The position numbers and the translations under genes were made by a program. Below the pieces are notes generated by a model. It saw nothing but the letters and a program-made list of their open reading frames with translations, made no database searches and was not told where the DNA came from. Below are positions 34,368-45,005 of a DNA stretch of 64,000 nucleotides, in pieces. Source of the stretch: Methylovorus mays (GTDB lineage: Bacteria; Pseudomonadota; Gammaproteobacteria; Burkholderiales; Methylophilaceae); contig NZ_JAJAVG010000008.1 in the NCBI RefSeq assembly GCF_020531915.1, forward strand, positions 682,001-746,000, given 5' to 3'. Each line of letters starts with the position of its first letter. The stretch's first letter is position 1.

Positions 34368-35510
34368 ATGCAAACATCGTCCGGTATTCCACTGCTGACA
34401 CCGCAACTGCCTGACCGGGCTGCCTTGCAGCCTTATCTTGAGCGCATAGACCACACTCGCCACTACTCCAACTTTGGTCCTCTTGTGCTAGAACTGGAGA
34501 GCCGTCTGGCCAGCCGTTTTTCTGACCAGGGTAAGCAACCACTCGAAGTGGTCACCGTCAGCAGTGCCACTGCCGGACTTGAGCTGGCCCTGACCAGCCT
34601 GGATCTGCCACCCGGCTCGCGCGTGCTGGTACCTGCATTGACCTTCGTCGCCAGCCTCACCGCCATATTGCGCGCCGGGCACCTGCCGGTTATCTGTGAT
34701 ATAGACCCGCACAGCTGGCTGCTCACGCCTGATATTGCAGAAGCCTGCATCGCCAGCAGTGATGCCAAGGCGATTATTGCCGTCGCCACCTTCGGCCAGG
34801 CGCAGGACACCTTGCGCTGGCAAGCGCTGCAGCAGAAAACCGGCGTCAAGGTCGTGATTGATGCCGCCGCCGCCTTTGGCAGCCAGTGGCTGCTCACGCC
34901 GGACATTCCCGTCGTCTTCAGCATGCATGCCACCAAATCGCTGGCAGCGGGAGAAGGCGGATTTGTCGTCACTGGCAACAGCGAGCAGCGGCAGATGATC
35001 AAGGAGCTGAGCAATTTCGGCATCAATCTCAACCCGGATACCCAGCATCCGGTCGGCCATCTCAGCTATGCGGGCACCAATGCCAAGCTGTCGGAATATC
35101 ATGCGGCAGTGGGACTGGCCAGCCTTGACACCTGGCAGCAGCAGGCCGATGCCAGACAGGCGATCTACCATCGCTATCAGCATTTGCTGCAATCCATGTG
35201 TGGAGAAACGCTGGTCTGGCAGCACGGACCATTGCCCGCGGCCCCCACAACGTTCAGTGTGCGCGTAGGTTCAGATGCACGGCGAATTAAACTTGAGCAA
35301 TTATGTGCCGTACAAGGTATAGGCACGCGACGCTGGTATCAGCCGCTACTACACCGGCATGCGGCCAAGGTAGGGCCTATCCTGCACTTGCCGACACCCG
35401 TGGCTGAAGCCGTAAGCTCAGACTTGATCGGCCTGCCGTTTTCACCCTTTTTGCAGGATGGACAAATGCAGGAAGTGGCTGCTAATGTGCTGGCCGCAGT
35501 AAGCGACTGA
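34368..35510 (+). CDS. DegT/DnrJ/EryC1-type sugar aminotransferase
   Basis: 380 aa PLP enzyme. The catalytic lysine is Lys190 in FSMHATKSLAAGEGGFV, the SxHxTKxLxxGEGG pattern of sugar aminotransferases. TVSSATAGLELALTSL (phosphate cup) and LVPALTFVASLTAILRAGHLP are also typical. It would aminate a keto-sugar nucleotide such as a 4-keto-6-deoxyhexose. The dehydratase that would make that substrate is not in the window. Confidence 0.9.
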   Translation: MQTSSGIPLLTPQLPDRAALQPYLERIDHTRHYSNFGPLVLELESRLASRFSDQGKQPLEVVTVSSATAGLELALTSLDLPPGSRVLVPALTFVASLTAILRAGHLPVICDIDPHSWLLTPDIAEACIASSDAKAIIAVATFGQAQDTLRWQALQQKTGVKVVIDAAAAFGSQWLLTPDIPVVFSMHATKSLAAGEGGFVVTGNSEQRQMIKELSNFGINLNPDTQHPVGHLSYAGTNAKLSEYHAAVGLASLDTWQQQADARQAIYHRYQHLLQSMCGETLVWQHGPLPAAPTTFSVRVGSDARRIKLEQLCAVQGIGTRRWYQPLLHRHAAKVGPILHLPTPVAEAVSSDLIGLPFSPFLQDGQMQEVAANVLAAVSD

Positions 35511-35543: not shown

Positions 35544-35768
35544 ATGGACAGCATCGAAGACTTCATCGAAAAATTCAATGGCGCGGTGGACTTTCAGGAG
35601 CCAGTGGAGATTACCGCCAGCACCCAGCTACACACCTTGCCAGAGTGGGATTCACTGGCTGCACTCGGCGTGATCGTCATGTTCAGCATGGAATACAACA
35701 AGACCATCAGTGGCGAAAACCTGAAAAACTGCAACACCATCGCCGACTTGCACGCGCTCAGCGCCTAA
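35544..35768 (+). CDS. Acyl carrier protein (dedicated)
   Basis: 74 aa. The motif EWDSLAALGVI has Ser37 in the DSL position used for phosphopantetheine. The rest fits the four-helix ACP pattern, though it is not the FabF-type housekeeping AcpP (E-x-L-G-A-D-S-L-D-T-V). Together with the KASIII and ketoreductase that follow, it likely carries a short acyl chain for transfer to an amino sugar. Confidence 0.87.
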   Translation: MDSIEDFIEKFNGAVDFQEPVEITASTQLHTLPEWDSLAALGVIVMFSMEYNKTISGENLKNCNTIADLHALSA

Positions 35769-35792: not shown

Positions 35793-36845
35793 ATGGCCCA
35801 GTCCACCTTGCACAATGTCCGTATTGCCGGTGTCGCTTCCTGCGTACCCCGACAGACTGTCTCCAACCTGGACTGCCCGCCAGAGCAAGTCTCCATGCGT
35901 GAACGCCTGGTACGGAATATCGGCATTGCATCACGCCGACAGTCGCCAGCCGGGTTGTGTTTCTCCGATCTGGCACAGCATGCCGCAGAAAAGCTGATAC
36001 AGGATCTGGGCTGGAACAAAGACGACATTGATGCGCTGATTGTGGTGACCCAATCGCCTGATTATCCTTACCCCGGTAGCGCCGTTATCCTGCAGGACCG
36101 CTTGGGCCTGCCCAATAGCTGTCTGGCATTCGATATCAATCTGGGATGCTCCGGCTACCCTTATGGCCTCTATGTCGTGGGCAGCATGATCTCGGCAGGC
36201 AAGCTGAAAAAAGCCCTGCTGCTGGTCGGTGACAAATCCACCAACCCCAACTCGCAGGATCAGGGCTTTGCCGTGCTGTTCAGCGACGCGGGCACCGCCA
36301 CCGCGCTGGAGTATGACGAATCCGCTCCACCAGCCTATTTCGACCTTTACTCGGATGGCTCGGGTTACAAAGCCATTTATTGCCCTGCTGGCGGTAACCG
36401 CAACCCCTTGCTTCCCGAGTATCTGGAACCCAAGGCAGGCGAAGACGGTGTCATTCGTCGCCAGGTTGATATCGTGCTGGATGGCCCGGCCATCCTGAAT
36501 TTTTCCACCACCCGCGTGCCACCGGCAGTGGATGCCTTGCTGGCGCAGGCCGGCTTGGGCAAGGAGGATGTGGACTGGTACCTGTTTCACCAGGCCAACA
36601 AAATGATCAACGAAACCATACGCAAAAAACTGGGCCTGCCGCCTGAGCGTGTTCCTTCCACCCTGTACGACTTTGGCAATACCAGTTCCGCCTCCATTCC
36701 GCTGACCCTGACCATGCACGCGCGTGAAACCATGCTGCAAAAACCGCAGCGCCTGCTGATGAGTGGGTTTGGCGTGGGGCTATCCTGGGCCAGTTGCATC
36801 CTGCAAATAGAGGGCGCCGTATTGCCGGAGCTGATTGAAGTATGA
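35793..36845 (+). CDS. 3-oxoacyl-ACP synthase III family protein
   Basis: 350 aa thiolase-fold enzyme. The nucleophile is Cys119 in [13 protein letters not shown], with His in [10 protein letters not shown] and Asn in [12 protein letters not shown], the full KASIII triad. It condenses an acyl-CoA with malonyl-ACP. Given its neighbours, it probably starts a short 3-oxoacyl chain on the dedicated ACP. The ATG of the next gene overlaps its stop. Confidence 0.9.
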
Positions 36846-37606
36846 GCACCACGGCTTACAACCCCTTTAGCCTGAGCGGCAAACGCATTCTGGTTACCGG
36901 TGCCAGTTCCGGCCTGGGGCTGGCAACCGCCATTGCCTGCGCCCGCATGGGAGCAGAAGTGATTGGCGTGGGGCGCGACCCCGAGCGTCTGCAATCTGCC
37001 TTGCAGGCACTGCAGGCCATCTCCCCATTGCAACATCAGATGCTGTCCGCCGAACTGACGGACGGCGCTGCCCGCGATGCCCTGTTGGCCCAGATCACGA
37101 CGCCGCTCAATGGTGTTGTGCATGGTGCTGGCATCTCGCGCCTGAGCCCGGTACGCATGATCACCGAAGCGCATCTGCGTGAAGTGCAGGCCGTGAACGT
37201 CGAAGCCCCCACCTTGCTGACCCAGGGTTTGTTGCGCAAAAACCTGATCGCGCAGGAAGGCTCCATCGTCTTTATCTCCTCGATTGCGGCCCATATCGGC
37301 GTCGCTGGTGTCGCCGCCTACTCCGGCACCAAGGCCGCCCTGATCGCCATTACACGCTGCCTGGCCATGGAGGTGATCAAGCGTCGCATCCGCGCCAACT
37401 GCCTGTCACCCGCGCTGGTGGAAACCCCGTTGCTGGATGCCACTGCCGCCATTACCGGCACCATCGAGCAAGAGCGCAATAATTATCCTCTGGGGTTCGG
37501 CAAGCCGGATGATGTCGCCCATGCGGCGATTTTCCTGCTATCGGATGCCAGCCGCTGGATCACCGGCACCACCATGGTGATGGATGGCGGACTCACCATC
37601 AGCTGA
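36842..37606 (+). CDS. Short-chain dehydrogenase/reductase, FabG-like
   Basis: 254 aa. [12 protein letters not shown] (NAD(P) loop), catalytic Ser in VFISSIAA and Tyr160-x3-Lys164 (YSGTKAAL) are intact. It ends with [13 protein letters not shown] as in FabG. It most plausibly reduces the 3-oxoacyl-ACP made by the preceding enzyme to 3-hydroxyacyl-ACP. ATGA overlap with the KASIII gene. Confidence 0.9.
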
Positions 37607-37608
37607 CC

Positions 37609-38262
37609 ATGAGCCATCAGCGCCATCGCAATCTGCTCATCGTAGGGGCTCGCGGCTTTGGCCGTGAAGTGCTCAATTACATCGAGAATGACAATCCGCT
37701 GTTCACGGTAAAAGGCTTTCTGGACCAGAACGTGAATGCGCTGGCGGGCTATGACCGCGATGTCGGTGTCGTTGGCGATCCCTTCACCTATCAGCCGCTG
37801 GAAAATGAAGCCTTTATCGCTGCTCTGGGCGATCCTCAGCAGCGCTTCAAATACACCGCCACCTTGCGCGATGTGCATCATGTCGATTTTGCGACCGTGG
37901 TACACCCGCGCGCCAATGTCGCCGCCCACAGCCGCATGCGACATGGCTGCATCATTGCGCCCAATGTCGGCATTTCATGCGATGTGGAGATAGGCGAGTT
38001 CACGCATATTCAGGAATACACCGTCATCGGCCACGATGCCCGCATCGGCAACTGGTGCCAGATCAACTCGCATTGCACCATCGCAGGTGGTGCCCAGATC
38101 GGGCATTTCGTCACCATACATCCCAATTGCGTGATCACCGCCAACGCCAGAATTGGCGATGGGGTAACCGTAGGGGCAGGCAGTGTCGTTATTGGGAAAA
38201 TTCCCGAAGGTGTCACCATATTAGGCAATCCCGCCAGACGATTTACATTTACTTCTGGATAA
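37609..38262 (+). CDS. NeuD-type sugar O/N-acyltransferase (hexapeptide repeat)
   Basis: 217 aa. It has an N-terminal nucleotide-fold piece (LLIVGARGFGREVLNYI) and a C-terminal left-handed beta-helix of hexapeptide repeats (IGEFTHIQEYTVIGHDARIG; NCVITANARIGDGVTVGAGS). NeuD/PglD/VioB-like enzymes acylate amino sugars at the nucleotide level. In this operon it could use the 3-hydroxyacyl-ACP and the amino sugar from the DegT enzyme. It begins 2 nt after the SDR stop. Confidence 0.88.
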   Translation: MSHQRHRNLLIVGARGFGREVLNYIENDNPLFTVKGFLDQNVNALAGYDRDVGVVGDPFTYQPLENEAFIAALGDPQQRFKYTATLRDVHHVDFATVVHPRANVAAHSRMRHGCIIAPNVGISCDVEIGEFTHIQEYTVIGHDARIGNWCQINSHCTIAGGAQIGHFVTIHPNCVITANARIGDGVTVGAGSVVIGKIPEGVTILGNPARRFTFTSG

Positions 38263-38266
38263 CCTC

Positions 38267-39571
38267 ATGTTTCCATTTCTTCACGAACAAACACTTAAGA
38301 ATGAGCTACTTCAACTTGGAAGCTCATTAGCCAATCCCGCCGCCCGGTTGCCCCAATGGCTGGACAAATCTCCGCAGAGCTTACTGAAAGAAAGCAAATT
38401 CATCGTCTGTGGCTCCGGTTGCCGTTCAGAAATCCGGGTGCTGGCGCAGCAAGCGAATGTGATTGCCATTGTCGATGATTTCCTTAAGCAACCAACTGTG
38501 TTCGGCATTCCGGTCATCCGTTCTGATGAGTGGATACAGCGTTGCCGCGAAGACCGGGCTATTGTTTCATGCATCCTTACGCCAAATGGCCGGGCGTTCC
38601 AGCACTTCACCAAACTGGCGACTCAGTGGGAATTGCGCACCCTGCTTCCCCTGCAGTTTCTGCATATGCTGGAAGAGTGCAACATCGACAGAAAAGGGGA
38701 AACCGGGCGTTTTTTCTGGTATGGCTATGAATTTTTTACTTACACCCTGGAACACCTGGATCGCCTGCTGGAGATACCAGCACTGTTTGAGGATAGTTAT
38801 TCCAGGATCTCATGGCTATCCATCCTGCTTTATCGCATGACACTGAATCCCTTTTACCTGGAAGGCTGCGCTGTAGGCAGCGGCGGTGGGCAATATGTGT
38901 TGAACGGCTATGGCGTCAACAAGCAGTTTTTCAAATTTTCAGATGATGAAGTCTATGTGGATGGCGGTGCTTTTACTGGCGACACCATTGCCTCGTTTCT
39001 CAATGCCTGCAATGGAAAATTCAAGCACATTCACTCGTTTGAGCCTTCGCATGACCACAATGTGCAAATCAGAAACCGCTTGCGAACTCTGCAGCATGAA
39101 TATCTTAAACCGCTGGCCAGCAGCATTACCTTGCACGAAGCCGGGCTCTGGGATAGCAAAACCACACTGGAATTCAACCCCAGCCAAATCGTTGATGACT
39201 TCGATATCACCAATCATGTGCAATCCAAATCCGCCCATATGGTGGACTCAGGCATCATCAATCACATCTATGATGACCACGTGGAAAGAAACGCCGCCAT
39301 TCAAGTGCCCGTAGTCACCATAGACGAGGCCACCCATGGCGAAGCGACTTATCTGAAATTTGAAATTGAAGGGTCTGAATTAAAGGCCCTGCATGGCGCG
39401 GCAGAAACCATAGCACGCAATCGCCCTAAAATGGCGGTGTCCATTTATCACAAGCCTGAAGACTTGATCACGCTGACTGAGTATGTCATTGCCACCGGCC
39501 AAAATTACAAACTTGGCTTCAGGCAGCACAACTCTCTGGCTCCAGATGGTATGGTGCTTTATTGCTATTGA
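38267..39571 (+). CDS. FkbM-family methyltransferase with N-terminal Rossmann-like domain
   Basis: 434 aa. From about residue 220 a FkbM methyltransferase: DEVYVDGGAFTGDTIASFL (SAM loop), IHSFEPSHDHNVQIRNRL and ATYLKFEIEGSELKALHGA. The first 200 residues begin with a nucleotide-fold-like region (FIVCGSGCRSEIRVLAQQAN) and have no clear family. It likely O-methylates the island sugar. Base composition is slightly more AT-rich than flanking genes. Confidence 0.85.
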   Translation: MFPFLHEQTLKNELLQLGSSLANPAARLPQWLDKSPQSLLKESKFIVCGSGCRSEIRVLAQQANVIAIVDDFLKQPTVFGIPVIRSDEWIQRCREDRAIVSCILTPNGRAFQHFTKLATQWELRTLLPLQFLHMLEECNIDRKGETGRFFWYGYEFFTYTLEHLDRLLEIPALFEDSYSRISWLSILLYRMTLNPFYLEGCAVGSGGGQYVLNGYGVNKQFFKFSDDEVYVDGGAFTGDTIASFLNACNGKFKHIHSFEPSHDHNVQIRNRLRTLQHEYLKPLASSITLHEAGLWDSKTTLEFNPSQIVDDFDITNHVQSKSAHMVDSGIINHIYDDHVERNAAIQVPVVTIDEATHGEATYLKFEIEGSELKALHGAAETIARNRPKMAVSIYHKPEDLITLTEYVIATGQNYKLGFRQHNSLAPDGMVLYCY

Positions 39572-39578
39572 TATCCAG

Positions 39579-40694
39579 ATGACTACCGGCCTCATACTTC
39601 CCGATTTTTACCGCAATCCTGCGCACCTGGCTCATGAGTACAACGCGCTGTTCAAGGCCGCGTGGAACTTCGTCGGCATGCGCTTCGAACTGGAGGGCGG
39701 CCTGCATCGCGGCATAAAAGTGGCTGATACCGACTTGCTCATCCAGCTGGATAAATCAGGCAAGCCTCGCGCGTATCGTAATGTATGCTCCCACCGTCAT
39801 GCCCAGCTTTGTGATCAGGGTTTGCACCATGGCCCCGTACGCTGCCCCTACCATAGCTGGACTTACGACCGCGAAGGCATACCGGTCGGCATTCCGCAGC
39901 AGCAAGCTTTTCCAGAGGTGGTTGCGAACCCGGCGGCTTATCGCCTGCAGGAATTTGCCTGTGAAGTAGCGGGCCAGTTCATATTTGTGCGATTAAGCGA
40001 AAACGGCCCCAGCCTGCAGGATTATCTGGGGGAGGAATTTGACTTTCTCTGCCGTGCATCCACCGGCATGACCAGCGTGCATGACGAGTTTCGCCAGGAG
40101 GTAGAAGCCAACTGGAAAGTGGTGATCGAAAACTCGCTGGAGGGCTACCATGTCCCCGCCGTGCACAACAAAACCTTCATGCAGGTGGAGGGCATGCAGC
40201 GCGGTTATGAAGCGCCGGTAGATCACCTTGAACATCCCTTGCACTCGCACATCGTCCATCCCGCCGATCCGGAATGGCTGGCCAGCTTTGAGCGCCGGGT
40301 GGAACCCAAGCTGGGAAAATGGCATTGGCGCTTTGCCAATTACACGCACCACCTGATTTTCCCCAACCTGACCGTCACCTCATTCATGGGCTATAGCTAT
40401 CACGTACAGCGCTTTGAACCGACAGCCGTTGACCGCACCACCGTGCATTCACGATCCGTTGGTGTCGGTTTTGAAGGGCAGTCCGCAGTTGGTGCAAAAA
40501 TGCTGGAACAAATCTACAGCGACAGCAAACATTTTACTGAGCGCGTGTTTGGGGAAGACGGCGACATTTGCAAAGCGGTACAGCTCGGCCTCAACAGCGC
40601 GGTCAATCCAGCCGTTATCGGCAATGGCATCGAATCGCGTGTCGCCCATTTCCATCGCGCCTATCAAGCCATGCTTCACGCAGAGGCCGCATAA
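39579..40694 (+). CDS. Rieske non-heme iron oxygenase, alpha subunit type
   Basis: 371 aa from ATG 39579; the frame opens earlier inside the FkbM gene but the family start fits here. The [2Fe-2S] ligands are Cys70-x-His72 and Cys89-x2-His92, and the mononuclear iron site is WKVVIENSLEGYHVPAVH. These enzymes hydroxylate or demethylate ring compounds. No ferredoxin or reductase gene is next to it. In the island it may oxidise the sugar or its acyl group, an unusual use of this family. Confidence 0.88.
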   Translation: MTTGLILPDFYRNPAHLAHEYNALFKAAWNFVGMRFELEGGLHRGIKVADTDLLIQLDKSGKPRAYRNVCSHRHAQLCDQGLHHGPVRCPYHSWTYDREGIPVGIPQQQAFPEVVANPAAYRLQEFACEVAGQFIFVRLSENGPSLQDYLGEEFDFLCRASTGMTSVHDEFRQEVEANWKVVIENSLEGYHVPAVHNKTFMQVEGMQRGYEAPVDHLEHPLHSHIVHPADPEWLASFERRVEPKLGKWHWRFANYTHHLIFPNLTVTSFMGYSYHVQRFEPTAVDRTTVHSRSVGVGFEGQSAVGAKMLEQIYSDSKHFTERVFGEDGDICKAVQLGLNSAVNPAVIGNGIESRVAHFHRAYQAMLHAEAA

Positions 40695-40698
40695 CATC

Positions 40699-43194
40699 TT
40701 GATTTCGAATATCCAGTTTTTACCCGACTTGCTGCGCAACACGCGCGCCTTCGCCGAAGGTTTTTATGACCTGGTGCGTGAACCCATCCTGCAAGGTTGC
40801 GGCATCCAGGCCGGGGCCTCTCCCGAAAGCCGTTTTGCTCACTGGCTGAAACCGGGGTTTTCTGTTGAGACTTTTCGCGAGCTCAGCGGCTGGGACGAGT
40901 CGGATATTGAAAACAGCTGGCTACGCCATTACTTTGCCCTGCCCACCAGCGCGGCTGACTATCTGCTCGCGCATTTGCCGGCAGATACGCTGATTCTCTC
41001 GTTTGAAATGCCGCCCTGGCTGTCTGATCTACTGGATCGCCAGCAGATCCCGTATCTCGATATCCGCGTGTCACCACTGCGCTTCGGGCGCGACCTCTAT
41101 ATTGCCTTGCGCACCCATCAGGGTAACCTCCGTCAGCGGCTACAGGCTTATGTGGTGAGTGCGGAAGAACTCAGACTGGAGGCGGCAGCCCTGGCGGCGT
41201 CCGTGCGCATGCATCAGCAGCGGCTGGAGGAATCTGGCCGCTACCCGCTGGATCTCGACAATACTCTCGTCTACATCGGGCAAGCGCCTTACGATGCATC
41301 GCTGTTATCCGACAAGCATTCCACCGCCCTGCGCTGCACCGACTTCGCCGACCAGCTGCGCGAGCTGGCCCAGGGGCGGCGCCTGCTGCACAAAGCCCAT
41401 CCGTTTGCAGCGGATTTTGCGAAGGAAGAACAACGTGCGCTTGCCGAGATCACCGGCCAGGCGGTCGGCACCTGCTACCAGAATGCCTATCAGCTCCTGA
41501 GTTGCGCCCACGATGTGGAACTGGTGGGCATTTCGTCGGGCATGCTGCAGGAGGCCAGCTGGTTTGGCAAACAGGCCCATACGCTGTTCCGGCCTGTGGT
41601 GCCGCTTCCATTGGCGGATACGCCCCTTTCTACTCAGGATTTCCTGCAAGTCCATTTCGAAGAGTGGCTGTCGCCAGGCTTCTGGCATGCCGTACTGACG
41701 CCTGAAAAGCCCGCTCCACGCCTGCTCAAGCTGCCGACCGTACAACATCACCATGCCCGCCAATCGCTGGATCAGTGGTGGGACTACGCCAAGGTGATGA
41801 CCTGGGAAAAATCACTGCCCATCGAATCTTTTGAACGCACAGGCGGCATCTTGCTGCGGCAACGCATTGAGGCGCTGGAGCAGGGGCTGCTGCAAAATCG
41901 CAGCATGGTGGTGGATTGCGATGAAGGCAACGAGGTGTATTGGCCATCCTCTGCCAGAATGCGCGGCAAAATCACCATACGCGGCCGTGGTAACCGGGTC
42001 ATCATTGATGAGCAGGTGGACTTTGACGCGACCATCGACATTACGGGCGACCATAACGGCATCGTAGTGGATAGAGACGTACGCATCGCGGGCAAGATCT
42101 ACGCTTCGGGTTCTGGTGGCATGCTCCGGCTGGGTGCGGGCTCGACCTTTACCCGTGTCATTATCAAGTGTCATGAGGGCAGAAACATTCTCATCGGCAG
42201 GGACTGCATGTTTTCCAATGAGATTGAGCTGCGCACCACCGATGGCCATGCCATCGTTGATCCTGAAACCGGCATGCGGCTGAATCCTGCGCAAGACATC
42301 GTCATTGGCGACCATGTGTGGGTGGGGAAGGGCGTCACCATCCTCAAGGGCGGGCAGATTCCGGGCAATACCATTGTGGGGGCCGACTCCCTCGTCAATG
42401 GCATTTACACCCAAAGCCAGACCCTGCTGGCTGGCAAGCCAGCCCGTATCATCAAAGAGCATGTCACCTGGCAGCGCGAACTGAAAAACAGCTTTAGTCA
42501 GGCCGAGCTGGAGGCATGGAAACGGACACCAGCGCCAGCAGAGGCAACGTCTCCGACGCTGGTTAACGATGACTGGGAACGCGCCAAACAGCTTGCCCTG
42601 GAAAAATTCGCCCAACAGCCTCAAGCCTTTGGCCGCGGGCAACTTTATCAAGGCCATGAGGCATGGGCGTTAGCTGGGCAACGCCCAACACTCTCACGTT
42701 TGCAGGCGTATGGGCTTGACCCGTATCTCTTGCCTGAGCACAAGGTGCTGGATATTGGCTGCAATCTTGGGCTGATGGGCATGGCCTTATCTCCCAGGAT
42801 CGCGCGCTACCATGGCATAGACAGTAACCCGGCATTGATTGAAATCGCGAGAATTCTGGCGGCAGGCCGCGGCATCAAGAACTGTGAATTTCAGCATTGT
42901 TCATTCAACGACCTGATGCAAACATCGCCAGAGCCTTACGACATGGTGCTGTCCTTTGCAGTCCATGTCTGGATAGGCTTGCCGATGGCGCAATACGCTG
43001 CCCAACTCAAAACACTGCTCAAGCCGGGTGGCACGCTGATTATCGAAAGCAATAATCTGGCGAGCAATGATCAATCCTTTTTCTCCGATATTCAGGTCTT
43101 TCTGGATCATGGCTATATCCTGCAGAAACAGGGCATGCTCAAGGATGACGGCATCATAGAGCGTGGCTTCTGCATTTTCCGATGTGGGCAATGA
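40699..43194 (+). CDS. Three-part fusion: polysaccharide-type transferase, hexapeptide acetyltransferase, SAM methyltransferase
   Basis: 831 aa from TTG 40699, chosen because it is 4 nt after the Rieske stop; an ATG at 40624 would overlap that gene. Residues about 1-360 resemble the non-processive capsule or GT99-like domains (LILSFEMPPWLSDLLDRQQI; LLHKAHPFAADFAKEEQRAL), an uncertain match. Residues about 415-590 form a left-handed beta-helix acetyltransferase (IVIGDHVWVGKGVTILKGGQ). Residues about 640-831 are a class I methyltransferase (VLDIGCNLGLMGMALSPRIA). A single protein would add, acylate and methylate a sugar. ATGA overlap with the next gene. Confidence 0.72.
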   Translation: MISNIQFLPDLLRNTRAFAEGFYDLVREPILQGCGIQAGASPESRFAHWLKPGFSVETFRELSGWDESDIENSWLRHYFALPTSAADYLLAHLPADTLILSFEMPPWLSDLLDRQQIPYLDIRVSPLRFGRDLYIALRTHQGNLRQRLQAYVVSAEELRLEAAALAASVRMHQQRLEESGRYPLDLDNTLVYIGQAPYDASLLSDKHSTALRCTDFADQLRELAQGRRLLHKAHPFAADFAKEEQRALAEITGQAVGTCYQNAYQLLSCAHDVELVGISSGMLQEASWFGKQAHTLFRPVVPLPLADTPLSTQDFLQVHFEEWLSPGFWHAVLTPEKPAPRLLKLPTVQHHHARQSLDQWWDYAKVMTWEKSLPIESFERTGGILLRQRIEALEQGLLQNRSMVVDCDEGNEVYWPSSARMRGKITIRGRGNRVIIDEQVDFDATIDITGDHNGIVVDRDVRIAGKIYASGSGGMLRLGAGSTFTRVIIKCHEGRNILIGRDCMFSNEIELRTTDGHAIVDPETGMRLNPAQDIVIGDHVWVGKGVTILKGGQIPGNTIVGADSLVNGIYTQSQTLLAGKPARIIKEHVTWQRELKNSFSQAELEAWKRTPAPAEATSPTLVNDDWERAKQLALEKFAQQPQAFGRGQLYQGHEAWALAGQRPTLSRLQAYGLDPYLLPEHKVLDIGCNLGLMGMALSPRIARYHGIDSNPALIEIARILAAGRGIKNCEFQHCSFNDLMQTSPEPYDMVLSFAVHVWIGLPMAQYAAQLKTLLKPGGTLIIESNNLASNDQSFFSDIQVFLDHGYILQKQGMLKDDGIIERGFCIFRCGQ

Positions 43195-45005
43195 GCAAGG
43201 CACCCACCATCCCCCAACTTGAATCAGGTGACGAAGCGGCATTACTGGCCCAGCTTGCCGCCCGCTACAGCTTGTTCGGGACGCTTCATGAAGCAGAAAC
43301 CCACTGGCAGCAAGCCCTCGCGCTGGACCCATCTCCGAGCAGCTGGTGGCTGGAGTTGGCCAGACTGCAACGCGCCCATGTTCCGGAGCTGGCCCGCGAA
43401 AGCTATGCCCAAGCGATTGCCCGGGGCTGCCCGCATGCCCGTGTTGAGGCCATGCCGCTCAGCCCTGATATCAACATACAGTATCGCAACAGCCTGGATA
43501 TCTGGACGGGCAATCGTCTCGATATCGCCGTCAAATTACTGTATGCGCTGAATTTTCTGGGCCAAGCGCAAGACGATGCGCTGTGCGTGCGCAGCCTGTA
43601 TCGCGAGCATATCCAGCAGCGCACATCGGGAAGAGAGCCCGGCTCGCACAGCAAGCTCAGCGTGGAGGATTATGAGCGCAGCTTTCAGCAGCTGATCCGC
43701 CAAATGCAGACGCAGGGATTCCATGCCCATGCGGCGATCCCCGTCTCTGCTACCGGCCGCATCCTGAATGGGGCACACCGCCTCGCCGCTGCGCTGGCGC
43801 TGGGTATCCAGAATGTACCCACCTTTGTAGTGGAACATGAAACGGTTTACGACTGGGATATGCGCTGGTTCTTACAGCATGGTTTTCAGCCACCCGCGCT
43901 TAATGCCATGCTCAAATGCTGGCTGGAGACCAAACAGCACAAGGCAGCCGGATGGCTTCTGCTAGAAATGCCACCACGTCAGCCGACAAGCCTGACCACC
44001 ATCATGCAATCCCGCGTAATCGCATGGCGCGAACTATGGCTGCAGGATAGCCATGCCCTGTCCGGTGCAGGCTTTACTGGCAAGCACACTGGCGATGCCG
44101 GGCTGACCCTGCGCTTCTTTCTGCTGGAAGGGGAGCAGGCTGATCGCACACACCTGCTCAATACGCTGCAACAGGCAGGGGAACATGCCATGATTTCCAG
44201 CAGTGAGGATCAGGCAGGTATCCTCACCAGCCTGCTGCTGGATGAATCGCAGATTGATCGCCTGCATGGTCATGCTTCCGTGCCGGATAAACGCATGGCA
44301 TGGGCCACTAAAAATATGCCCTTGGCGAGCTTGAAGGCAGCTGTACCTGCTCCCGCGGCAAAATGGGAAAACCTTCGTCTGCTGGAGGGGATAAACACGG
44401 TGATTGATGTAGGCGTTGCGTATGGCACTCCCGCCCTCTATCGCCACTTCCCGCGGGCCCATGTCGTTCTGATAGAACCCGTGCCGCATTTCCGGGAACC
44501 AATTGCTGCCTTGCGCAAGACGCTGGCGAGTAGTGACTATATTGAGCTTGGCCTGGGCAGCGCGCCTGCCACGGCAACGATCAACTATCGCCACGATGCG
44601 CCAATCTTAACCTCGCTACTGGAAAGCAGCGCCCTCCGTGACAACGGTCATGAAGAGATAGAACCCATCACCATCCAGCTGACGACCCTGGATCTTTTGC
44701 TTCCTGGCCTGCCCCATCTGCCGTCGGACATTCTGCTCAAGATAGATAGTGAGGGCTACGAGCTTGAGATTCTCAAGGGTGGCATCGAGGTCTTGCCTAC
44801 GATCAAATATCTGATGCTGGAGGTTTCCGTTATCAAGCGTTTTGAAGCTTCCTATAGCTGCACCGAACTTATGCAGTTTCTTCAACAGCAGGGGTTTGTT
44901 CTGTTTACCTGCCTGTCTGCCAGCGTTGACACTGAAGGCTATTGTCGGGTGATAGATGCCATTTTCATCAATAGCCGATACCTCGACACCACTACCGCCG
45001 CCTGA
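43191..45005 (+). CDS. FkbM methyltransferase with TPR-like and ParB-like N-terminal regions
   Basis: 604 aa from ATG 43191 (ATGA overlap); ATG 43182 is in frame too. Residues about 15-75 look like one or two TPR helices (ARYSLFGTLHEAETHWQQAL). Around 160-225 a ParB/sulfiredoxin-like segment contains GRILNGAHRLAAALALG. From about residue 400 a FkbM methyltransferase follows (VIDVGVAYGTPALYRHFPRA; DILLKIDSEGYELEILKGG). It is the last gene of the island. The function of the middle segment is unknown. Confidence 0.78.
   Translation: MSKAPTIPQLESGDEAALLAQLAARYSLFGTLHEAETHWQQALALDPSPSSWWLELARLQRAHVPELARESYAQAIARGCPHARVEAMPLSPDINIQYRNSLDIWTGNRLDIAVKLLYALNFLGQAQDDALCVRSLYREHIQQRTSGREPGSHSKLSVEDYERSFQQLIRQMQTQGFHAHAAIPVSATGRILNGAHRLAAALALGIQNVPTFVVEHETVYDWDMRWFLQHGFQPPALNAMLKCWLETKQHKAAGWLLLEMPPRQPTSLTTIMQSRVIAWRELWLQDSHALSGAGFTGKHTGDAGLTLRFFLLEGEQADRTHLLNTLQQAGEHAMISSSEDQAGILTSLLLDESQIDRLHGHASVPDKRMAWATKNMPLASLKAAVPAPAAKWENLRLLEGINTVIDVGVAYGTPALYRHFPRAHVVLIEPVPHFREPIAALRKTLASSDYIELGLGSAPATATINYRHDAPILTSLLESSALRDNGHEEIEPITIQLTTLDLLLPGLPHLPSDILLKIDSEGYELEILKGGIEVLPTIKYLMLEVSVIKRFEASYSCTELMQFLQQQGFVLFTCLSASVDTEGYCRVIDAIFINSRYLDTTTAA

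What the first reader, a model, noticed from the sequence alone, without database searches (positions are those of the whole stretch)
40699..43194. Single protein joining a transferase-like domain, a left-handed beta-helix acyltransferase and a methyltransferase
The frame is open for 831 codons across three domains that normally sit in separate proteins. It would perform consecutive modification steps, perhaps capping a glycan (addition, acylation, methylation), as in chain terminators that fix O-antigen length.
Basis: partly seen in the sequence, partly recalled or inferred. Interest (0 to 1): 0.55.

Follow-up and report, generated by a model that had tools for sequence, protein, structure and literature searches.

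The report
Three-in-one glycan-capping enzyme, GT140-type
One bacterial gene joins a sugar-adding enzyme of a family described only in 2026 (probably adding the acidic sugar Kdo) to an acetyl-adding and a methyl-adding enzyme, inside a swappable gene island that probably decorates flagella, which suggests how bacteria build and vary such surface sugars.

Summary
In detail: one 831-codon frame (40699-43194, TTG start) with three domains. Residues 1-385, unnamed by Pfam and NCBIfam, are a GT140-type retaining transferase. They match KrkA, the E. coli K13 Kdo transferase, by sequence (E 5e-15; family profile 3e-72) and by predicted fold (Z 30.9, against 14.3 for the next family), and keep its nucleophile (D199), base (E103), carboxylate-binding Gln (Q195) and CMP motif (K-x-H-P). 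Residues 423-598 resemble the sialic-acid O-acetyltransferases OatWY/NeuO and keep both catalytic residues. Residues 626-831 are a SAM methyltransferase.

The gene sits in a viosamine-type island (aminotransferase, ACP, ketosynthase, reductase, N-acyltransferase, TPR-GT41). The seven nearest GT140 relatives carry other C-terminal partners or none; three lie 5-9 kb from flagellin genes. Two congeners have the same chromosomal slot and island core but no GT140 protein. So it looks like an optional capping step on an existing glycan.

Most likely it adds Kdo (5 of 8 genomes lack NeuB; all have a CMP-Kdo-synthetase-type gene), then O-acetylates and O-methylates. Donor, acceptor and flagellin as target are inferred. 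New variant of a known kind.

The parts
40699..43194 (+). Trifunctional protein, 831 aa, TTG start: GT140-type transferase + OatWY/NeuO-like O-acetyltransferase + SAM methyltransferase
40699..41853 (+). GT140-type retaining transferase domain, residues 1-385 (E103 41005-41007, Q195, nucleophile D199 41293-41295, K232-x-H234-P235 41392-41403)
   Evidence: phmmer to KrkA E 5e-15, profile E 2.8e-72, fold Z 30.9, residue map
41854..41898 (+). Helical linker (about residues 383-400) that also ends the stand-alone and other fused relatives
41899..42498 (+). Left-handed beta-helix O-acetyltransferase domain (matched 423-598; catalytic H517 42247-42249, W541 42319-42321), lying between GT140 and MT where the GT140-MT protein L030 has no such domain
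42574..43194 (+). SAM methyltransferase domain (residues 626-831; motif VLDIGCNLG 42745-42771); a separate gene in Candidimonas L035, fused directly to GT140 in L030
32713..34365 (+). TPR + GT41-type glycosyltransferase, candidate protein-glycosylating enzyme
34368..35510 (+). DegT/DnrJ/EryC1 aminotransferase (VioA-like)
35544..35768 (+). Small acyl carrier protein, 74 aa (weak profile match, E 0.004)
35793..36845 (+). FabH-like ketosynthase III (VioS-like)
36842..37606 (+). SDR, 3-oxoacyl reductase type (VioR-like)
37609..38262 (+). NeuD/PglB/VioB family sugar N-acyltransferase
   Evidence: TIGR03570 above its cut-off
38267..39571 (+). FkbM-family methyltransferase
39483..40694 (+). Rieske non-haem iron oxygenase
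43182..45005 (+). TPR + FkbM methyltransferase, overlapping the fusion's 3' end; follows GT140/MT also in L030 and L035

Best explanation
A trifunctional glycan-capping enzyme. The GT140-type domain binds a CMP-activated ulosonic acid, most likely CMP-beta-Kdo, forms a covalent sugar adduct on D199 and, with E103 as general base, transfers the sugar with retention to an acceptor glycan. The OatWY/NeuO-like domain then O-acetylates, probably that ulosonic residue, from acetyl-CoA (H517/W541). The C-terminal domain O-methylates the cap with SAM. The acceptor is probably the N-(3-hydroxyacyl)-4-amino-sugar made by the neighbouring aminotransferase/ACP/ketosynthase/reductase/N-acyltransferase genes and put on protein by the TPR-GT41 enzyme; the protein is probably flagellin. 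Shown here: domain identities, conserved catalytic residues, island synteny, and presence or absence of the capping module at one chromosomal site. Inferred: donor, acceptor, order of steps, flagellin as target.
For: GT domain: KrkA match E 5e-15, profile 2.8e-72 over KrkA 1-354, predicted fold (pLDDT 83.6) closest to KrkA: Foldseek E 3e-21, Z 30.9 over 338 residues, WbbB 14.3, KpsC 9.2. KrkA E102/R127/Q189/D193/H227/P228/Y255/S271/E276/W347 map to E103/R128/Q195/D199/H234/P235/Y264/S280/E285/W361; in the paper D193, E102, R127 and H227 variants have no detectable activity and Q189/D193 are 'absolutely conserved'. CMP donor: K-x-H-P in 12 of 13 aligned sequences, R-x-H-P in the other. Kdo rather than a nonulosonate: NeuB absent from 5 of 8 clade genomes, a strong CTP_transf_3 (KdsB-type) match in 8 of 8. 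Acetylation: OatWY E 4e-31 with H121 and W145 kept; in E. coli K13 the krkA gene lies beside an acetyltransferase gene and Kdo O4 is partly acetylated. Glycan context: viosamine-type core genes; VioS-like gene at 59% identity or more in 8 of 8 clade genomes and in 3 of 56 compared relatives without the domain, Fisher p 4e-8, not corrected for kinship or for how the 8 were chosen. Add-on role: congeners G001/G002 have the same flanks (thiG 99%, thiD 99%) and island core (GT41 88%, DegT 75%, ACP 70%, FabH 63%) but no GT140, LbH, MT or TPR-FkbM match. Flagellin: 3 of 8 islands lie 5-9 kb from a flagellin gene.
Against: The window clade stands on a long branch from the KrkA-like sequences (3.64 changes per site); W122 and R170 of KrkA (adduct and acceptor contacts) are R123 and Q173, so donor or acceptor specificity may differ. 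Nothing here shows that acetyl and methyl groups go on the sugar that the first domain adds. The window's island is not near its flagellin genes (G000:C9 against C10). The Burkholderiales relative L032 lies outside any island, though its genome has the vio core on another contig. G000 also has a NeuB, so a nonulosonate donor is possible in this organism.
Confidence: 0.5

Rival explanations
1. The GT140-like domain has changed donor and transfers the nucleotide-activated N-acyl amino sugar made by the island itself (a functional replacement of VioT), not Kdo.
For: Tight association with the VioS-like gene (8 of 8); long branch to KrkA; changed adduct-site and acceptor-site residues W122 and R170; no VioT-sized ORF in the window's island.
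Against: CMP-pocket and carboxylate-binding residues are kept in all 13 aligned sequences (Q195, H234, P235, Y264, E285). G001, G002 and G018 have the core genes with GT41 but no GT140 domain, so something else must transfer the core sugar there. L031 has a 1192-aa GT2 protein as well as the GT140 protein.
Confidence: 0.15
2. The donor is a CMP-nonulosonate (pseudaminic or legionaminic type).
For: G000 has a NeuB fusion protein; the acetyltransferase domain is nearest to sialic-acid O-acetyltransferases; in Methylobacillus a PseF-like cytidylyltransferase lies upstream of the GT140 gene in the same gene run (below that model's cut-off).
Against: 5 of 8 genomes of the clade lack NeuB. The G000 NeuB lies on another contig beside an ABC transporter gene. 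GT140 is defined on a Kdo transferase.
Confidence: 0.18
3. Same chemistry, but the glycan is not on flagellin (surface polysaccharide or another protein).
For: The island lies between thiamine-biosynthesis genes, not in the flagellar cluster; a GT140 relative on a plasmid lies near other glycan genes.
Against: Three homologous islands lie beside flagellin genes; the viosamine genes act on flagellin in P. syringae, from an island bounded by glutamine synthase and histidine kinase genes; no homologue of the window's island genes lies in the stretches examined around the flagellin genes of G000 (30 kb) and G428 (20 kb).
Confidence: 0.25
4. Degenerate or non-functional fusion, or an annotation artefact.
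For: TTG start; the three-domain form was seen only in this genome.
Against: Catalytic residues intact in two domains and the SAM motif in the third; open frame of 831 codons; GT140-MT fusion at 58% and 52% identity in L030.
Confidence: 0.03

Closest known systems
KrkA GT140 module (E. coli K13 capsule; PDB 9yfx/9yfy/9yfz; PMC12887879, all Results parts and Discussion read)
   Same: Fold over about 340 residues, nucleophile, base, Gln of QxxxD, HP motif, most CMP-contact residues, N-terminal position in a multi-domain protein
   Different: 23% identity in the aligned part (62 of 265); partner domains are OatWY-like and MT instead of a ribosyltransferase; K-x-H-P instead of S-x-H-P; different acceptor contacts; viosamine-type island instead of capsule locus
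WbbB GT99 and KpsC GT107 retaining beta-Kdo transferases
   Same: General fold, QxxxD and HP motifs
   Different: Lower structural similarity (Z 14.3 and 9.2); their base sits at the residue equivalent to KrkA W122, here R123, while E103 occupies the KrkA position
OatWY / NeuO (polysialic acid O-acetyltransferases; PMC3046976 passages read)
   Same: Left-handed beta-helix family, catalytic His and Trp, 35% identity to OatWY (61 of 176 positions)
   Different: Separate trimeric enzymes acting on polysialic acid; here an internal domain between a transferase and a methyltransferase
Pseudomonas syringae viosamine island (PMC3927599 passages read)
   Same: Aminotransferase, ACP, KAS III, reductase, N-acyltransferase and methyltransferase functions
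   Different: No VioT-sized protein here; TPR-GT41, Rieske, FkbM and the trifunctional protein instead
GT140-MT protein of Methylophilaceae bacterium MTYP (L030)
   Same: Both outer domains (58% and 52% identity), TPR-GT41 and TPR-FkbM neighbours, same thiG/thiD site
   Different: No acetyltransferase domain; no match to the window's Rieske gene

Membership tests
GT140 (founding member KrkA) | Significant sequence similarity over the domain | tested here: met
   phmmer E 5e-15; profile E 2.8e-72 over KrkA 1-354
GT140 (founding member KrkA) | QxxxD with nucleophilic Asp and conserved Gln | tested here: met
   Q195 and D199
GT140 (founding member KrkA) | General base Glu at the E102 position | tested here: met
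   E103
GT140 (founding member KrkA) | HP motif and CMP-contact residues | tested here: met
   H234, P235, Y264, S280, E285, W361; T254 and S272 differ (A263, G281)
GT140 (founding member KrkA) | Retaining Kdo transfer from CMP-beta-Kdo | not testable with these tools
   needs enzymology; indirect support
GT140 (founding member KrkA) | Acceptor contact R170 from the neighbouring protomer of a trimer (not family-defining in my view) | tested here: not met
   Q173 at that position; it varies across the 13 sequences, so I treat it as acceptor-specific
GT99 (WbbB) / GT107 (KpsC) | General base at the residue equivalent to KrkA W122 | tested here: not met
   R123 (placement of the base from PMC12887879)
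OatWY/NeuO-type O-acetyltransferase | Catalytic His and Trp of the beta-helix family | tested here: met
   H517 and W541 aligned to H121 and W145
OatWY/NeuO-type O-acetyltransferase | Acts on sialic acid polymers | not testable with these tools
   none
Class I SAM methyltransferase | Rossmann SAM-binding motif and Pfam methyltransferase profile | tested here: met
   five Pfam families above cut-off, residues 675-787
Viosamine-type island | vioA, acp, vioS, vioR, vioB homologues together | tested here: met
   at the level of families, not by comparison with the P. syringae sequences; the ACP profile match is weak (E 0.004)
Viosamine-type island | VioT-sized (about 1170 aa) transferase | tested here: not met
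   no ORF above 926 aa between 32713 and 45005
O-antigen chain terminator | O-antigen locus or export context | tested here: not met
   neighbours are viosamine-type and thiamine genes; the features of chain terminators themselves are recalled, not tested

The most novel reading that the evidence does not exclude
A clade of GT140 enzymes, outside capsule synthesis, caps the N-acyl-amino-sugar glycans of bacterial flagella with Kdo; each lineage bolts a different finishing enzyme (methyltransferase, acetyltransferase plus methyltransferase, radical SAM, Maf-like domain) onto the same transferase, giving interchangeable caps at an otherwise conserved island.
Probability: 0.4. Interest if true: 0.65.

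Novelty: new variant of a known kind. Interest (0 to 1): 0.5.

Why it matters
GT140 was founded in January 2026 on one capsule enzyme. This clade puts the same catalytic machinery in flagellin-type glycosylation islands and predicts Kdo, known from LPS and capsules, as part of such a glycan. Natural with/without pairs at one locus, and C-terminal partners that differ from lineage to lineage, make a testable case of how surface glycans diversify. A published trick (the Asp-to-Cys variant self-labels with Kdo in E. coli) allows a one-protein test of the donor.

Tried and rejected
Rejected: residues 1-400 as an ordinary named glycosyltransferase family (Pfam and NCBIfam listings give none for them). 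VioT identity of the GT140 domain: VioT is 1173 aa, and only 1 of 298 genomes of the Pseudomonas sp. 8AS genus has a clear GT140 match (a second, at E 8e-4 with stops in the frame, was dropped). Phage or plasmid origin of the fusion: no record of either collection covers 80% of it; the viral-contig scan found nothing. The full-length model was poor (pLDDT 65.5, pTM 0.48, low in the acetyltransferase part) and was not used for domain arrangement. A tree of 13 sequences did not resolve the order of fusions inside the clade, so I claim no single fusion event. Papers: no report of this protein or of Kdo on native flagellin turned up in the listings of searches of an open-licence library; not proof of absence. 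Of PMC11339370 (a Maf enzyme that can put Kdo on flagellin when its native sugar is missing) I saw only the search listing with the start of the abstract. The FUS_MT and FUS_LbH segments were cut out of frame and gave no rows; they were redone. One search read one strand only and missed minus-strand matches; redone.

Full report
Observation. The frame 40699-43194 is open for 831 codons. It begins with TTG 4 nt after the upstream Rieske gene; the seven near relatives start near the equivalent residue. Pfam sees only the methyltransferase (residues 675-787); NCBIfam adds acetyltransferase hits below their cut-offs at about 490-600.

Residues 1-385. A single-sequence search of the PDB finds one family, KrkA, at E 5e-15. 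A profile of 13 sequences (window, L030-L036, two genes of L028, L053, L054, L055) covers KrkA 1-354 at E 2.8e-72. The predicted domain (13-sequence alignment, mean pLDDT 83.6) is closest to KrkA (Foldseek E 3e-21; Z 30.9, rmsd 3.1, 338 residues), then WbbB (Z 14.3) and KpsC (Z 9.2). KrkA is the founding GT140 enzyme, a retaining Kdo transferase with nucleophile D193, base E102, Gln189 and an HP motif (PMC12887879). Their equivalents are D199, E103, Q195 and H234-P235. Across the 13 sequences R128, Q195, H234, P235, Y264 and E285 are the same in 13 of 13; E103 and D199 in 11 of 13, the two Methylobacillus sequences having D and E there; K232 in 12 of 13. W122 and R170 of KrkA are not kept (R123, Q173).

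Residues 401-600. OatWY (E 4e-31) and NeuO (3e-27) are the nearest solved structures by sequence. The catalytic His and Trp named in PMC3046976 (passages) are H517 and W541. In a class-level sample 10 of 369 genomes besides the window's own (which is the eleventh match) have a relative of this domain at E 1e-10 or better, in open frames of 176-279 aa; on S. meliloti pSymB such a gene lies near two genes annotated as polysialyltransferase-family.

Residues 626-831. A SAM methyltransferase, 52% identical to the C-terminal domain of the GT140-MT protein L030 and 54% to a separate gene that starts 8 bp after the stand-alone GT140 gene of Candidimonas (L035). The acetyltransferase domain thus lies where L030 has only a short linker.

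Relatives. The genome-contig scan gave 7 loci. Architectures: GT140-MT (L030 Methylophilaceae MTYP), GT140 with another MT (L036 Comamonas; no match to the window's MT at E 0.001), GT140-radical SAM/SPASM (L032, Burkholderiales MAG), GT140-MptE-like (L033 and L034, Methylobacillus caricis and arboreus; below the Pfam cut-off), stand-alone (L031 Pseudomonas sp. 8AS, L035). The three-domain form was seen only in the window. GT140 relatives at E 0.001 or better, own genome included: 2 of 369 (class), 4 of 399 (order), 6 of 398 (phylum; one of these a distant, partial match at E 1e-4), so it is rare. The eight-member clade is monophyletic (100/100) on a long branch; its inside is mostly unresolved.

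Island. Upstream lie TPR-GT41, DegT aminotransferase, a 74-aa ACP, FabH-like, SDR, NeuD/VioB-family, FkbM and Rieske genes; downstream TPR-FkbM. These include the functions of the P. syringae viosamine island, whose product caps flagellin rhamnans and limits their elongation (PMC3927599, passages). A VioS-like gene at 59% identity or more exists in 8 of 8 clade genomes and in 3 of 56 compared relatives without the domain, plus one at 44% (Fisher p 4e-8, ignoring kinship and the fact that the 8 were chosen for the domain). The absence of the domain from these 56 rests. In L031 the GT140 gene lies between two flagellin-family genes and upstream of fliD, about 5 kb from the nearer flagellin gene; the distance is 6 kb in L036 and 9 kb in L035. 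In the window's genome and in L030's, L033's and L034's the island is instead beside thiG, and L032's gene lies alone between alkA/ada-type and pyruvate carboxylase genes.

Natural with/without comparison. Two genomes of the window's genus (G001, G002) have the same flanks (thiG 99%, RNase T/GIY-YIG 94-96%, thiD 99%, the 45210 ORF 90-93%), and inside them identity falls along the island: GT41 88%, DegT 75%, ACP 70%, FabH 63%, SDR about 51%, then distant or unrelated genes; no GT140, acetyltransferase, MT or TPR-FkbM match. So the core presumably makes and places a sugar without the trifunctional protein, which looks like an optional later step, swapped in by recombination (inference).

Donor. 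NeuB is found in 3 of 8 clade genomes and a strong CTP_transf_3 match (E 1e-51 or better, KdsB-type) in 8 of 8. Hence CMP-Kdo is the CMP-ulosonate available to all. Methylobacillus differs: a PseF-like cytidylyltransferase sits upstream of its GT140 gene and its two catalytic acids are swapped Asp/Glu.

Verdict. Domain identities are firm. The sequence Kdo transfer, O-acetylation, O-methylation on an N-acyl amino-sugar glycan, probably of flagellin, is the best reading (0.5). It is a new variant: known parts in a combination and setting that none of the paper searches brought up.

Noticed in passing
L033, L034 (GT140 domains); L021:6704-7429: In Methylobacillus the base and nucleophile positions are D and E instead of E and D, W347 is lost, the domain is fused to an MptE-like (Maf-related) domain, and a PseF-like cytidylyltransferase gene lies upstream in the same gene run: perhaps a changed donor.
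   Followed up: partly
window:31393-49072; L082, L083, L084, L080, L081, L030: A variable glycan island next to thiG recurs across Methylophilaceae; flanks are up to 99% identical while the island's 3' half is replaced between congeners, like a serotype-switching locus.
   Followed up: partly
L032:7841-10105: GT140 fused to a radical SAM/SPASM domain, outside any glycan island, between alkA/ada-type and pyruvate carboxylase genes.
   Followed up: partly
   Followed up: no
L025:382-2652 (G000:C8): A 756-aa NeuB protein with extra N- and C-terminal regions beside an ABC transporter-like ORF: a possible second ulosonic-acid pathway in the same genome.
   Followed up: no
window:39483-40694: Rieske oxygenases recur in these islands (one or two in G001, G002, G018, L031, L021, L036) although the P. 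syringae viosamine gene table lists none: an unexplained oxidation step.
   Followed up: no
window:26340-28055: RTX-repeat protein with a matrixin/serralysin-like metallopeptidase domain on the minus strand.
   Followed up: no
L074:3776-4912: A GT140-type gene annotated hypothetical on a Rhizobium rhizogenes plasmid, near repC and conjugation genes.
   Followed up: no
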